From the NCBI RefSeq assembly GCF_024055715.1, contig NZ_JAMXMV010000013.1, positions 186,001 through 250,000 of the forward strand: DNA of 64,000 bases, in the 5' to 3' direction. Below, piece after piece: positions 7,048 to 22,172 of the stretch. Below the pieces are notes generated by a model. The model was not told the DNA's origin, made no database searches, and was given only the letters and a program-made list of their open reading frames with translations. The first letter of the stretch is position 1, and every line of letters begins with the position of its first letter. The stretch comes from Actinoallomurus soli. Its GTDB lineage: Bacteria > Actinomycetota > Actinomycetes > Streptosporangiales > Streptosporangiaceae. A program made the position numbers and the translations under genes.

Positions 7048-8121
7048 TCAGGGCAGGCGGAGCCGGTCGACGGCGTCACGACGCCGTCGCTCGGGACGGC
7101 GGTCATAGCGTGCCGTCGTGGCCGGTGAGGCGTGACCGACGAGTTGCTGCGCCGTGGCCAGGTCGACTCCGGCGTCGAGCAACTCGCCGATGAAGGTCCG
7201 CCGGAAGTCGTGGGGCGTGTGCGACGGCACACCCGCCTCCGCCAGTCGGCGGGCGAGGATCCCGGCGATCGCCTGACCCGTGGGGTGGGCCAGGGCCCCG
7301 TCCCGGACCCGGCACCGGCCCATCCTGCTGATCGGCGGGAACAGTGCCCCCGGCCCGCGGCCGCGTACGGCGATCCACGCGTCCAGCCGCGCGGCCGCCT
7401 CGACCGTCACGAAGACCAGCCGCTCCTTGTCGCGCTTGCCGCGAACCCGCAGGGACCGCTCCGCCGGGTCATAGTCGCCGACCGCCAACCCGGCGATCTC
7501 CCCGCGCCGGGCGCCGGTGGTGTACAGCGCGGCCAGCAGCGCCGCGTCCCGCCGCCCGGCGGGCGAGGGATCGGCGTCGCACACGGCCAGGGCGGCGGCC
7601 AGGGAACGGTCCGGGATGTGGTGGCCGCTCGGCAGCCGGCTCCCCTCCACCGACTTCAGGTCCACGGCGCGCTGGTAGTCCTCGGCCGTCATCAGCCCCA
7701 GCCGCCAGCACTCGCGCAGCACCTGCCGCAGCGCCACGAGATGCTTGTTGATCGAGGACGGCGAGTAGGCCGGCCGCCCGTCCTCCCCCGTCCTGGCGCG
7801 CAGTTCGGCGCGGATCCGCGTCGTGTGCTCGTAGCGGAGCAGCCACCACGGGCGTCCGGCCCCGGTCACGTTCTCGTCCATGGCGACGATCCGGGCGATA
7901 CGGTCAAGGCAGCCGCGCATCGTACGCCGCGACTGCTCGCTGTCCAGCCGGTCCAGGTAGACGCGGTACGGGTCGCGCTCCGGGTCGTACGCCGACGGCA
8001 GGCCCGGAGCCCCCCAGTCGCGCAGCGCGCCCCCGGCGGCCGACGCCGGCCGGGCCGGCACGCCGCCTCCGCGGATCCGGTCGGGGCTCGATGCCGTGCC
8101 GTGAGATTCGTCTTCAGCCAT
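7048..8121 (-). CDS. Tyrosine recombinase/integrase
   Basis: A 357-aa site-specific recombinase. The N-terminal SAM-like core-binding domain (residues about 45-160) is followed by a catalytic domain with YTTGARRGEIAGL (first Arg), a KRDKERLVFV beta-hairpin Lys, HDFRRTFIGELLDAG (His-x-x-Arg), LVGHASPATTARYDRR (second His and nucleophile Tyr). All catalytic residues are present, so it looks active. No att duplication or tRNA is visible nearby, so its element cannot be delimited; it may be a solitary XerC/D-like integrase or a remnant of an integrated element. Confidence 0.9.
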   Translation of the reverse strand: MAEDESHGTASSPDRIRGGGVPARPASAAGGALRDWGAPGLPSAYDPERDPYRVYLDRLDSEQSRRTMRGCLDRIARIVAMDENVTGAGRPWWLLRYEHTTRIRAELRARTGEDGRPAYSPSSINKHLVALRQVLRECWRLGLMTAEDYQRAVDLKSVEGSRLPSGHHIPDRSLAAALAVCDADPSPAGRRDAALLAALYTTGARRGEIAGLAVGDYDPAERSLRVRGKRDKERLVFVTVEAAARLDAWIAVRGRGPGALFPPISRMGRCRVRDGALAHPTGQAIAGILARRLAEAGVPSHTPHDFRRTFIGELLDAGVDLATAQQLVGHASPATTARYDRRPERRRRDAVDRLRLP

Positions 8122-17697: not shown

Positions 17698-17717
17698 CTC
17701 GTCTGTACGAGGGCGGC

Positions 17718-17739
17718 GGGGCTTGAGCAGCAACCGAAC
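17718..17739 (+). repeat. Left Tn3 terminal repeat, outer part (first 22 bp)
   Basis: It starts GGGGCTTGAGCAG and is identical to the outer 22 bp of the right repeat. The sequence diverges after CCGAAC, where the IS110 element begins. Confidence 0.8.
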
Positions 17740-17998
17740 TGTGATTCTTGATTTAGGTGATCCGGCTGGGTCGGATTGCTGTCAGGCTTGACTCGCAACC
17801 GAACTGGCGCCCACGGGCTGCCTTGTGTGCCGAGATGTCTGCCGGGGTGCCGGCGTCGGCCTGGCCCACCTTCGTTGGCTTGATCAGCAGCTTGTCCGCC
17901 GCCCAGCGGCGTGACTCATCACAGTTCTGCCACGCGGTGATCTCACCCAGGCCGACACCGACCACACGGTCGTCTTCGTCGGAAGGAAGAACAACCGC
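17740..17998 (+). ncRNA. Candidate IS110 bridge RNA region
   Basis: IS110 elements of the IS621 type encode a structured guide (bridge) RNA in the non-coding end next to the transposase. Here the non-coding left end contains GCAACCGAACTG at 17795-17806, an exact 12-bp copy of the target flank and junction at 17730-17741. That is what a target-binding-loop guide would look like. The RNA ends and folding were not computed, and the right-target guide was not identified. Confidence 0.45.
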
Positions 17999-19084
17999 AT
18001 GACCATGCTGGCAGAACAGGTCGATGGTGTCATCGGCGTCGACACCCACCGCGACACCCTGGCCGCCGCGGCGGTATCCGTCCTCGGCGCGGTGCTCGCA
18101 CACGCCGAAGCCTTCGCCGACCAGCGCGGATACCAGCGGCTGCTGGCCTTCGCCCGACAGCAGATCCCGGGTGCTCGGTGCTGGGCGCTGGAAGGAACGG
18201 GCAGCTACGGGGCCGGGCTCGCCGCCTTCCTCGACGCTGCCGGTGAACGGGTCGTCGAGGTGTGCCGTCCCAAGCGGCCCCCGCAGCGCGGAGGCCGCAA
18301 GACCGACGCGATCGATGCAGTACGGGCGGCCCGTGAGGCGCTGACGGCTGAGCACCTGATCCATCCGCGTCGTCGCGGTGAGCGCGAGGCGCTGCGGGTT
18401 CTGCCGACCACACGCCAGGGCGCGGTCACCTCCTGCACGGCGGCGATCAATCACCTCAAGGCCCTGATCGTGTCCGCGCCCGAGGATCTGCGGGCCGAGC
18501 TGCGCGGCAAGGGCCGCATGGCCGCGATCTCTTACTGTGCCCGGCTCCGAGACCGGCCGGCCCAGACCATCGAGCACCGGATGACCGTCCGCGCTCTGCG
18601 GACCACTGCCCTCCGCATCCAGGCGCTGCGCGCGGAAGCCGACGACCTGGAGGCCGAGATCGTCCTTCTGGTCGAGGCGATGGCACCTGAGCTGCTGCGG
18701 CTGCCCGGCGTCGGCCCGATCAGCGCGGCGCAGATCCTGGTGAGCTGGTCCCACCCCGGCCGATTCCGGTCCGAGGCCGCGTTCGCCTCCTTCGCAGGCA
18801 CCGCACCGATCCCCGCCTCCTCCGGCTTGACCAACCGTCACCGGCTCAACCAGACCGGCGACCGGCAGCTCAACCGGGCACTGCACACGATCGTGCTGGT
18901 CCGCATGCGCATCGATCCGGCCACCAAGGCCTACGTCCAGCGACGCACCACCGAGGGCAAATCGCCCCGTGAAGCCCGACGCTGCCTCAAACGCACCATC
19001 GCCCGCCAGGTCTTCAAACTCCTAGAGCGAAGGCCCGCTGAAGAAAGCCGAACCGTCACCGACGACCTCCCGCTGGCGGCTTGA
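17999..19084 (+). CDS. IS110-family transposase (DEDD recombinase)
   Basis: A 361-aa IS110 transposase. The N-terminal RuvC-like DEDD domain shows GVIGVDTHRDTL (first Asp), CWALEGTGSYGAGLAAFL (Glu) and RKTDAIDAVRAA (Asp pair). The C-terminal Tnp_IS116/IS110/IS902 domain contains LLRLPGVGPISAAQILV, RFRSEAAFASFAGTAPIPASSG and the conserved Ser region, then RQLNRALHTIVLVRM. Full length and uninterrupted, so probably active. It inserts DNA via a guide RNA without terminal repeats. Confidence 0.92.
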   Translation: MTMLAEQVDGVIGVDTHRDTLAAAAVSVLGAVLAHAEAFADQRGYQRLLAFARQQIPGARCWALEGTGSYGAGLAAFLDAAGERVVEVCRPKRPPQRGGRKTDAIDAVRAAREALTAEHLIHPRRRGEREALRVLPTTRQGAVTSCTAAINHLKALIVSAPEDLRAELRGKGRMAAISYCARLRDRPAQTIEHRMTVRALRTTALRIQALRAEADDLEAEIVLLVEAMAPELLRLPGVGPISAAQILVSWSHPGRFRSEAAFASFAGTAPIPASSGLTNRHRLNQTGDRQLNRALHTIVLVRMRIDPATKAYVQRRTTEGKSPREARRCLKRTIARQVFKLLERRPAEESRTVTDDLPLAA

Positions 19085-19101
19085 CAGATATAGCAGCCTC
19101 G

Positions 19102-19116
19102 GCCGGTCGCGTTAAG
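19102..19116 (+). repeat. Left Tn3 terminal repeat, inner part (last 15 bp)
   Basis: GCCGGTCGCGTTAAG matches positions 24-38 of the right repeat with one change, resuming immediately after the IS110 right end. Confidence 0.75.
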
Positions 19117-20079: not shown

Positions 20080-20490
20080 GATGTCCTCGGCGGCGTTGTT
20101 GCCGTAGACCTGAATGTTCGCACGCATCGGTTCTGTGAACGACGCCGACGGAGACCTTCACGCCGGTGGCGATGGTGCGGATGGACTCGCCGCGGGCGCG
20201 GCGGGCCAGGATGGCGCGAGGCCAGGTCGAGGATGAGGGAGCGTTCGGTGTGCTCGCCGGCGGCGATGCCCTCCAGCACCTTGACGGCGACGCCGTGCTG
20301 GAACAGGTCGTTGAGGACGATCAGCCCCTCGAGGAGGTTTCGGCCCAGACGGTCGACCTCGTGGACGGTGAGCAGGTCGCCGTCGCGGAGGTAGGACAGC
20401 GAGGTGAGCAGGTCGGGCCACATCCTCCCAGTTGCGGCGGATCTTCCGCAGGAAGATCTTCCCGCGCGCGAAGGTGTCCAGTGACCGCCG
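20080..20490 (-). pseudogene. Serine recombinase (Tn3 resolvase type), frameshifted
   Basis: Pieces in successive frames reconstruct a resolvase: ARGKIFLRKIRRNWEDVARP, then LTSLSYLRDGDLLTVHEVDRLGRNLLEGLIVLNDLFQHGVAVKVLEGIAAGEHTERSLILDLA (the E/D-x-DRLGR core), then a changed frame with ILARRARGESIRTIATGVKVSVG (C-terminal HTH). The N-terminal catalytic Ser segment is missing and there are at least two frameshifts. It was probably the resolvase of the surrounding Tn3 transposon. Confidence 0.65.
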
Positions 20491-20605
20491 CCCCACGCCT
20501 GGGCCAGCGGCAGCCCGGCCTGCTTGTCGACCAGCGGCGCGTTCGCCGAGCTCAACGTCTCGGGCCGGAACGGCCAGTCACGACAAGACGAGCCCGCCGG
20601 GGCTC

Positions 20606-20643
20606 CTTAACGTGACCGGCGGTTCGGTTGCTGCTCAAGCCCC
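20606..20643 (-). repeat. Right Tn3 terminal repeat, intact 38 bp
   Basis: Read on the minus strand it runs from GGGG (20643) to TAAG (20606) and is uninterrupted. It is the reference that shows the left copy has been split. Confidence 0.8.
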
Positions 20644-20658
20644 GCGGCCCACGCGGCA

Positions 20659-20906: not shown

Positions 20907-22082
20907 TCAACCCAGCGGGCGCAGCCTGACCGCATGCTTGAGGAAGACGATGCCGTCGATCATGTCGAGTTGCGCCGGGTCCAGCGGGAAATAGGCGAAG
21001 TCGCGGGAGACACGGGGGGCGGGCCTCGTGATGGTCTCGGCCAGGCGGCGGGCGTCGATGAGAGCTCGGTCCCACGGAAGCGTGGACAGGATGCCCTCAA
21101 TGGTGTCCGGGGACGGGGTGTCGTCGCCGGCCGTGCCGAGGGCCGAGGCCAGGAAGGCGTACCGGTCGCCCAGCTGCGTCCCGATGATCGCCCCTGCGCT
21201 CCACCACCCCAGCCGCTGGTCACCGAACGGCATGCAGCTCCTGGTCCGCTGCAGGTGGAGGTTGGAGGAGAAGACCAGGGCCGGCCCGTGCTCGGCGACG
21301 GCACGCAGGTTGGCGGCCATCATCGCGGCCCGCAGGGCCGACAGCCGGGTCCACCGCGCCGGGGACGCGTCGGCCATCCAGTAGTGGTAGCGGAGCAGGC
21401 CGGTGGCGGTTCGCGCGTACAGTGCCGCCCGCGCCCTGCCGTCCGGGCTCAGCTGCGGCGCCTGCGTTTCGAGCAGTGCCACCAGGTCATCGGTGATCAG
21501 CCGCAGCCGCTGCGCGTCGGCGGACCGGCCGATCGACTGGGACGGATCCATCGCCGTGGCCTCGTTGGACCACCGGTCGTCCGGGCCGAGCAGCGCGTCG
21601 AGGGTCTCCCTGGTCACCACCGTACGCGGCAGCGGACCGTCGAGGAGGGAGTAGAGGGCGGTGAGCGCCTGGCGCGGGCTCGCCGCCCAATACTCCAGCG
21701 GGCCGTCGAACCCGAAGAACCGCAGCTTTTCGTCATGCTCTTCGTTGTACGCCCGCATCCACCGCACGAGGTCGCGGTTGGCCGGCGAGGTGCCGAAGCC
21801 GTGGCTGAAGCCGCGTTCCATGACGTCGTCGAGCGTGCCGGCGCCCGTCATGATGTAGTCGTCCACCACGAGGCCCATGAGACAGTCGCTCTCGATGGCG
21901 AACGACCGGTAGCCCTCGTGCTCGACCAGATGCCGGAAGATCTCGTTGCGCACCTCCCCCAGCTCCCCCACGAAGTGCCTGGCCTCGCCCAGGCCGAGCA
22001 GCAGGGGCTGGGCGGGAAGCGACCGCAGGAACGCCGAGACGCCCGCGCCATCCAGCGGCCGGGCCGTGTTCTTGATGTCCAT
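20907..22082 (-). CDS. Erythromycin-esterase-like hydrolase
   Basis: A 391-aa protein of the erythromycin esterase (Ere) superfamily. Visible active-site elements are LLLGLGEARHFVGE (Glu and His), RSFAIESD (Glu), ERGFSHGFGTSPANRDLVRWMRAYN, and VFSSNLHLQR (His). Ere enzymes open the macrolide lactone by hydrolysis; relatives act on other substrates, so macrolide resistance is only a possibility. In-frame starts exist at 22148, 22106 and 22082; the last was chosen because it leaves a usable 90-bp divergent promoter region with a palindrome. It is divergent from a double-HTH MerR regulator. Confidence 0.8.
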   Translation of the reverse strand: MDIKNTARPLDGAGVSAFLRSLPAQPLLLGLGEARHFVGELGEVRNEIFRHLVEHEGYRSFAIESDCLMGLVVDDYIMTGAGTLDDVMERGFSHGFGTSPANRDLVRWMRAYNEEHDEKLRFFGFDGPLEYWAASPRQALTALYSLLDGPLPRTVVTRETLDALLGPDDRWSNEATAMDPSQSIGRSADAQRLRLITDDLVALLETQAPQLSPDGRARAALYARTATGLLRYHYWMADASPARWTRLSALRAAMMAANLRAVAEHGPALVFSSNLHLQRTRSCMPFGDQRLGWWSAGAIIGTQLGDRYAFLASALGTAGDDTPSPDTIEGILSTLPWDRALIDARRLAETITRPAPRVSRDFAYFPLDPAQLDMIDGIVFLKHAVRLRPLG

Positions 22083-22086
22083 TTCC

Positions 22087-22102
22087 TCAACGGTATCGTT
22101 GA
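22087..22102. promoter_or_regulatory. Palindrome in the esterase/MerR divergent region
   Basis: TCAACG-GTAT-CGTTGA is a perfect 6-bp-arm palindrome just upstream of the chosen esterase start. It could be a regulator site. A second short palindrome, GGCGTC-A-GACGCC, lies at 22134-22146. Confidence 0.4.
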
Positions 22103-22172
22103 ACATTCGGTGTAAACTTTCCCGTCCAAATCCGGCGTCAGACGCCATGAACCTTCAATCGGTGGTGCATCC

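What the first reader, a model, noticed from the sequence alone, without database searches (positions are those of the whole stretch)
17718..19116. IS110 element inserted inside a 38-bp Tn3 terminal repeat, with a target copy in its non-coding end
Seen: the right Tn3 repeat (20606-20643) is an uninterrupted reference; the left copy is split after 22 bp by about 1.36 kb with an IS110 transposase. The non-coding left end repeats the 12-bp junction GCAACCGAACTG (17730-17741 and 17795-17806). Known: IS4321/IS5075 (IS1111 group of IS110) target Tn21-type repeats, and IS110/IS621 elements use a bridge RNA with target guides. Inferred: the internal 12-mer is the left-target guide of a bridge RNA that programs insertion into Tn3 ends.
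Basis: partly seen in the sequence, partly recalled or inferred. Interest (0 to 1): 0.74.

Follow-up and report, generated by a model that had tools for sequence, protein, structure and literature searches.

The report
RNA-guided jumping gene inside transposon end
A small jumping gene (IS110 type) sits inside one end of another transposon and encodes what comparison with its relatives shows to be an RNA guide matching that very spot; relatives carry other guides and sit in other spots, so this is a clear new case of a known kind of RNA-guided element.

Summary
An IS110-group element (17739-19099, 1361 bp) splits the left 38-bp repeat of a Tn3-type element that has GCGGC at both outer ends. The 12-mer occurs exactly twice in the window.

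In 26 distinct element/flank pairs the internal guide covaries with the outside flank: 132 of 182 cells match, 0 of 100,000 permutations as high (relatedness not corrected). Right guides covary with right flanks in three classes. Twenty-five aligned relatives share a target loop and a donor loop, 9 pairs changed on both sides. The model hits the window at 108 bits.

Corrections: the target-matching guide is GCAACCGAAC; the final TG matches the element's own end. Targets are reprogrammed among relatives; many sit at the end of another IS110 element. The 19 uninterrupted sites read (15 distinct) all lack the CT that flanks inserted copies, so the crossover is probably at one shared C. This copy has lost about 18 nt of the loop's 5' arm present in 25 of 25 aligned relatives; its present activity is uncertain.

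Mechanism known (IS621, ISEc21); new member.

The parts
17713..17717 (.). 5-bp direct repeat GCGGC outside the left end of the Tn3-type element
   Evidence: equals 20644-20648
20644..20648 (.). 5-bp direct repeat GCGGC outside the right end of the Tn3-type element
17718..17738 (+). outer 21 bp of the left 38-bp terminal repeat; left target (LT) of the insertion
19100..19116 (+). inner 17 bp of the left 38-bp terminal repeat; right target (RT) of the insertion
20606..20643 (-). uninterrupted right 38-bp terminal repeat (36 of 38 identical to the left one taken without the insert)
17739..19099 (+). IS110-group insertion sequence, 1361 bp; the first C could equally be counted at the right end
   Evidence: boundaries from Tn3 repeat length and from uninterrupted sites of relatives
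17739..17998 (+). 260-nt 5' non-coding end that encodes the guide RNA
17781..17792 (+). what is left of the 5' arm of the target loop; about 18 nt are missing between 17788 and 17789 relative to the 25 aligned relatives
17795..17804 (+). left target guide, GCAACCGAAC, identical to 17730-17739
17806..17822 (+). apical hairpin between the two target guides
17829..17834 (+). right target guide GCCGAG; GCCG pairs with target CGGC, the last AG fits the element's own right-end CT (handshake-type bases)
   Evidence: handshake reading inferred from PMC11208158
17835..17864 (+). 3' arm of the target-loop stem
17882..17893 (+). left donor guide, resembles the right end (AGCAGC then CT)
   Evidence: inferred
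17918..17926 (+). right donor guide ATCACAGTT: reverse complement of AA + CTGTGAT, i.e. the left target's AA and the element's left end
   Evidence: inferred
17999..19084 (+). IS110 recombinase, 361 aa, DEDD and Transposase_20 domains, no internal stop
19081..19086 (+). TTGACA, -35-like box in the right end; TTGAC is present in 20 of 20 relatives found by protein or DNA similarity whose right end was read; would form a junction promoter in a circle
   Evidence: promoter role inferred from IS621
20232..20441 (-). remnant of a serine resolvase gene of the Tn3-type element
   Evidence: Pfam Resolvase 6.2e-07
20485..20548 (.). short remnant similar to Tn3 family transposase genes
   Evidence: three plasmid hits, H30-H32, cover this stretch; two of them are annotated as Tn3 family transposase

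Best explanation
It is an IS110-group element whose left non-coding end encodes a bridge RNA (seekRNA). The RNA's target loop holds a left guide (GCAACCGAAC) and a right guide (pairing with CGGC) that together matched the left terminal repeat of a resident Tn3-type element. The recombinase used that RNA to insert the circular element there, without a target duplication. Shown by comparison: the loop, the two guides and their covariation with targets, the insertion boundaries, the uninterrupted sites. Inferred: transcription of the RNA from a promoter formed at the circle junction, recombination through a circle, and a crossover at one shared C:G pair, with the remaining constant guide bases acting as handshake guides (right target guide AG for the element's CT; right donor guide UU for the target's AA). 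The left and not the right Tn3 repeat was hit perhaps because the right repeat has CGC where the guide wants GGC just after the C. The insertion separates the two halves of the repeat and so should lock that Tn3 end.
For: Guide/left-flank covariation: 26 distinct pairs, 132 of 182 cells at the seven positions before AAC, permutation mean 102, 0 of 100,000 as high; 7 of 7 in the window, L007, L017 and L063, with four different 7-mers. Right guide/right flank: +1 to +6 match in 23, 23, 23, 22, 20, 18 of 23, with three target classes (GGC, GGGG, AAAA); permutation of +3..+6: 83 of 92, mean 69, 8 of 100,000 as high. RNA structure: 50 pairs, 98.3% of cells paired, 9 pairs with changes on both sides; 0 of 500 shuffles as high on four of five measures and 3 of 500 on the fifth. 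Model hit at 17764-17934, 108.4 bits, E 1.8e-19; next window hit 13.2 bits. Recombinase: Pfam; nearest solved structures ISCro4 and IS621. Boundaries: 38-bp repeat restored at 36 of 38; uninterrupted sites, 3 of the 8 loci read and 16 of 16 fetched (15 distinct together), all without CT.
Against: No RNA or circle was measured. The permutation controls ignore relatedness; many Streptomyces pairs are near relatives. The structure was counted on an alignment from which it was derived. Some copies fit poorly: L016, L023 and L065 match 3 of 7. The window's own right guide matches only 4 nt (CGGC), of which CG is constant. The window's RNA lacks most of the 5' stem arm: 11 stem pairs with open guides against 26-29, and a fold of -40 kcal/mol against -54 to -71 in relatives; its free fold buries part of the guides, as it does in some relatives.
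Confidence: 0.92

Rival explanations
1. The repeated 12-mer is not a guide but a leftover of duplication, conversion or a nested insertion of the Tn3 end.
For: The likeness extends to 22 nt at 86%, more than a guide needs.
Against: In relatives the inner copy changes together with a different outer flank, and it sits in a conserved loop. A duplication would not track unrelated targets.
Confidence: 0.03
2. The element is guided, but recognises Tn3 ends or ends of mobile elements by protein or DNA structure, with the guide adding little.
For: Window (Tn3 end), L049 (Tn3-like end) and Streptomyces copies (end of an IS110 element) sit at ends of mobile elements.
Against: Across classes the sites share little beyond AAC and CG; the variable parts follow the guides. 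L007 and L017 are not at an end I could recognise.
Confidence: 0.05
3. Crossover uses the IS621-type CT core, and the uninterrupted sites without CT are unrepresentative.
For: Guides can be read as covering CT; inserted copies have CT at both ends. All 19 uninterrupted sites are ends of one kind of IS110 element.
Against: 19 of 19 uninterrupted sites read (15 distinct) lack CT, and the window's Tn3 repeat would be 40 instead of 38 bp, with a 38-bp partner; L049 shows the same offset against the Tn3 end of H33.
Confidence: 0.12
4. The copy in the window is a dead relic: the deletion in the target loop inactivated it after insertion.
For: 5' arm 15 nt against 33-34 nt in 25 of 25 aligned relatives; model score 108 against 136 in the nearest relative L007 and up to 200.
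Against: Recombinase intact; a shortened 11-pair stem with open guides is possible at 5.5 kcal/mol, relatives 1.2-6.8; the donor loop is intact. A 5'-truncated relative, L120, scores lower still (98).
Confidence: 0.55

Closest known systems
IS621 and its bridge RNA (IS110 group; PMC11208160 and PMC11208158, passages read)
   Same: Guide RNA in the left end; target loop then donor loop; left guide like the top strand, right guide complementary to it; -35-like box in the right end; DEDD plus Transposase_20 recombinase; constant bases placed like handshake guides.
   Different: The uninterrupted targets read here lack the CT core; the shared base is a single C; recombinase is 361 aa against 328 in the IS621 structure, and sequence likeness is weak (2.2e-06).
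ISEc21 and ISMch6 seekRNA (IS110 type; PMC11187229, abstract, passages and section 13 read)
   Same: Upstream non-coding region, intermediate-size transposase, no target duplication, natural redirection between close relatives, target inside other IS elements.
   Different: Target there is a coding stretch of IS3-family elements; here a Tn3 repeat or an IS110 end. Direct sequence comparison was not made.
IS4321/IS5075 (IS1111 group; PMC8269217 passages read; Partridge and Hall 2003 seen only as a reference, not held)
   Same: Targets terminal repeats of Tn3-family (Tn21-like) transposons.
   Different: IS1111 group with subterminal inverted repeats and a downstream non-coding region; here neither is present. 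A parallel solution, not the same element.
ISCro4 (solved structure 9t56)
   Same: Nearest recombinase by sequence among solved structures.
   Different: Only the C-terminal half matches clearly; guide RNA not compared.

Membership tests
IS110 family (IS110 group) | DEDD RuvC-like domain and C-terminal Transposase_20 domain | tested here: met
   PF01548 9e-16 and PF02371 1.2e-22, both above cut-off
IS110 family (IS110 group) | Long non-coding end upstream of the recombinase, short one downstream | tested here: met
   260 nt and 15 nt
IS110 family (IS110 group) | No terminal or subterminal inverted repeats | tested here: met
   best ungapped 12-mer inverted match between the outer 40 nt is 7 of 12; 992 of 1000 shuffles as good
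IS110 family (IS110 group) | Left-end RNA with a target loop and a donor loop | tested here: met
   in the window copy the target loop is shortened
IS110 family (IS110 group) | Target guides covary with insertion sites | tested here: met
   (relatedness not corrected)
IS110 family (IS110 group) | Circular intermediate, expressed guide RNA | not testable with these tools
   needs PCR and RNA sequencing
IS621 subgroup | CT core present in the natural target | tested here: not met
   19 of 19 uninterrupted sites read lack CT. Tested on relatives' targets and on repeat length, not on an uninterrupted copy of the window's own site
IS1111 group (IS4321/IS5075) | Subterminal inverted repeats of 11-13 bp and downstream non-coding region | tested here: not met
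Tn3-family transposon (the host element) | 38-bp terminal repeats starting GGGG, 5-bp target duplication (defining traits recalled) | tested here: met
   a 38-mer 32 of 38 identical lies in a plasmid stretch that also encodes a Tn3 transposase
Tn3-family transposon (the host element) | Intact transposase gene | tested here: not met
   only a short remnant at 20485-20548; so a non-autonomous or decayed member

The most novel reading that the evidence does not exclude
An IS110 subfamily that lives on the ends of other mobile elements, with reprogrammed guides for Tn3 terminal repeats and for IS110 left ends, and that recombines at a single shared C:G pair. The constant 'core' bases of its guides match not their own partner but the other one: right target guide AG pairs with the element's CT, right donor guide UU pairs with the target's AA. 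This would be natural, built-in handshake pairing, and it would let the element tell one end of the same Tn3 from the other.
Probability: 0.4. Interest if true: 0.62.

Novelty: new member of a known kind. Interest (0 to 1): 0.5.

Why it matters
It gives a clear natural series of guide reprogramming inside one actinomycete IS110 subfamily, with many uninterrupted sites for comparison, and it indicates that IS110-group elements, and not only the IS1111-group IS4321/IS5075, have guides for Tn3 terminal repeats. If the single-C crossover and the swapped constant bases hold, they are a natural test of the handshake model of bridge-RNA recombination and widen the choice of recombinases for targets without a CT core.

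Tried and rejected
Rfam search of the window at gathering thresholds gave nothing. A right-end pattern with a three-base spacer found 0 of 396 phylum and 1 of 345 order genomes; it could not match the window itself, whose spacer is two bases, so these counts underestimate the family. With a two- or three-base spacer 19 of 295 genomes of the genus of G030 matched; with the window's own spacer and up to 2 mismatches 5 of 342 order genomes, the own one included. My pattern for the Tn3 repeat (0 of 150) was one base too long and could not match even the right repeat without mismatch; it says nothing. A search for an uninterrupted GGAA..CGAAAAGTCCCG site found 0 of 6 genomes. The viral collection gave one fragment. 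Duplication or conversion as the source of the 12-mer was rejected by covariation. I first took CT as the core; uninterrupted sites made me drop that. Comparison of L007 and L017 flanks with the DNA around them gave nothing that names their targets.

Rows left out; 2 of 35 guide-bearing loci had no readable left end, and 7 of the other 33 repeated a counted pair; 4 of those 26 pairs had no readable right flank; L120 was added; 8 of the 15 loci were read (5 occupied, 3 uninterrupted); of the other 7, three are copies already read as L041, L043, L048 and four match another sequence; 16 of the 24 records were fetched; of the other 8, H34 and H44 are the occupied L042 and L048, and H38, H40, H49, H55, H56, H57 were not read. 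Search expressions that force bases: one search required A(A/G)(C/T)TGTGA at the left end, and the 25 relatives were picked with an expression that required CGAG and the donor-guide TT, so the constancy of those bases there is no evidence. Without any motif, 19 of 23 relatives keep the loop; CGAG is in 19 of 19 and the donor-guide TT in 18 of 19 (the other reads TN); the outermost columns of that alignment are shifted by a gap and were not used.

The novelty statement rests on eight text searches, of which I saw listed titles and abstract openings (lists of 55 and 79 cut at 15 of 34 and 12 of 52); none of the listed entries showed an IS110-group element targeting Tn3 repeats in actinomycetes. 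Most subscription papers are not held.

Full report
What is there. Inside are a resolvase remnant, a stretch like Tn3 transposase genes and a 217-aa ORF without a Pfam match: a decayed or non-autonomous Tn3-type element. A 38-mer 32 of 38 identical to its right repeat lies in a Streptomyces plasmid stretch that also encodes a Tn3 transposase. The left repeat is split by a 1361-bp element, 17739-19099, with a 361-aa recombinase carrying both IS110 domains, nearest in the PDB to ISCro4 and IS621.

Boundaries. Removing 17739-19099 leaves 38 bp that are identical to the right repeat at 36 of 38 positions. Independent evidence comes from Streptomyces relatives, which sit at the end of another IS110 element (Pfam on two flanking ORFs, L043 and L102; the same left flank in 24 plasmid records, 22 of them over at least 80%). 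Uninterrupted copies of that end read ATAA followed by CGGG or CGAGG: 3 of the 8 loci read, and all 16 fetched of the 24 records (12 distinct); none of the 19 has CT. Inserted copies read ATAA-CTGTGA ... AGCAGCCT-CGG (L046 has ATTGTGA). So the insert adds CT at both ends, no CT is present beforehand, and the only base shared by target and element at the crossover is a C. L049, in another genome of the order, has a right flank that matches the Tn3 end of H33 at the same offset (score 28), and the inner Tn3 sequence of the window equally well (28, against a maximum of 24 in 500 shuffles). A second Tn3-type insertion is therefore probable; its left end is lost.

The guide RNA. Aligning left ends shows a variable stretch in the middle that resembles the sequence outside the left end of the same copy. 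Over 26 distinct pairs the seven positions before AAC match in 132 of 182 cells against a permutation mean of 102, with 0 of 100,000 permutations as high. Four copies with four different 7-mers match in all seven (window, L007, L017, L063); the other 22 match in 3 to 6. On the right side the reverse complement of the second variable stretch matches the right flank at +1 to +6 in 23, 23, 23, 22, 20 and 18 of 23 pairs, with three classes of target (GGC, GGGG, AAAA; the last from L120 alone); 8 of 100,000 permutations are as high. These controls do not correct for relatedness.

Structure. The 25 relatives (window left out; picked with an expression for the loop motifs) share one structure: a 28-pair stem, an internal loop with the left guide on its 5' side and the right guide on its 3' side, an apical hairpin between them, then a second, more conserved stem-loop. 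Of 50 pairs 98.3% of cells are paired and 9 pairs have changes on both sides; no shuffle of 500 is as high on four measures and 3 of 500 are on the fifth (number of pair types); sliding by one to three columns drops pairing to 31-47%. The structure was derived from the same alignment. The model finds the window at 17764-17934 with 108.4 bits; the next window hit has 13.2 bits. The second loop holds ATCACAGTT, the reverse complement of AA + CTGTGAT, that is the left target's AA and the element's left end, and a left-side stretch like the right end AGCAGC-CT.

Reading of the constant bases. In IS621 the right guides carry 'handshake' bases that pair with the other partner after strand exchange (PMC11208158, passages read). 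Here the right target guide has a constant AG (in CGAG, 19 of 19 relatives that keep the loop, found without using the motif) that fits the element's CT and not the target, and the right donor guide has a constant UU (18 of 19; the other reads TN) that fits the target's AA and not the element. Together with CT-less targets this suggests a crossover after one shared C. This is inference; no circle was sequenced.

Why this end. Taken without the insert, the left repeat has AAC-GGC at the crossover; the right repeat has AAC-CGC. The right guide wants GGC. That could explain the choice of end, but one case proves nothing.

State of this copy. The 25 aligned relatives have a 33-34-nt 5' arm before the guide; the window has 15. 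An 11-pair stem with open guides is still possible (26-29 pairs in relatives), at a cost of 5.5 kcal/mol over its free fold, within the range 1.2-6.8 of relatives; its free fold is weaker (-40 against -54 to -71 kcal/mol). The recombinase and the donor loop are intact. Whether it can move is open; I lean slightly to a relic.

Known and new. RNA-guided target choice by IS110-group elements, the two-loop RNA, natural redirection (ISEc21/ISMch6) and insertion without duplication are published (PMC11208160, PMC11208158, PMC11187229; passages, and of the last the abstract and section 13, read). Targeting of Tn21-type terminal repeats is published for the IS1111-group IS5075 (PMC8269217, passages). 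I file this as a new member of the IS110 group. It is not an IS1111 element, and it differs from IS621 in that the uninterrupted targets read lack a CT core.

Noticed in passing
17783-17806 (junction 17788/17789): The deletion in the target loop joins GGCT to TGACTC and thereby creates GGCTTGA three bases before the guide, exactly as in the Tn3 repeat outside (GGCTTGA, three bases, GCAACCG). Coincidence or a trace of template switching with the repeat; unexplained.
   Followed up: partly
L046, L063, L068 (guide), L046 (left end): AATTG instead of AACTG in the guide; in L046 also at the left junction, so the shared base itself can change.
   Followed up: no
L065: A copy whose left flank looks like the sequence just before the recombinase start of another copy of the same IS, with a poor guide match (3 of 7): off-target self-insertion or rearrangement.
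   Followed up: no
L117, L119, L120, L121: A third group of right flanks beginning CGAAAA, with a fitting right guide in L120; the target element was not identified.
   Followed up: partly
G000:C32:13429-13492 (L097): A second stretch in the same genome like the inner end of the Tn3-type element, next to a different outer sequence.
   Followed up: partly
20907-22148 (-): Erythromycin-esterase-family gene just outside the right end of the Tn3-type element (Pfam PF05139).
   Followed up: no
7048-8121 (-): Tyrosine recombinase (Phage_integrase) gene upstream.
   Followed up: no
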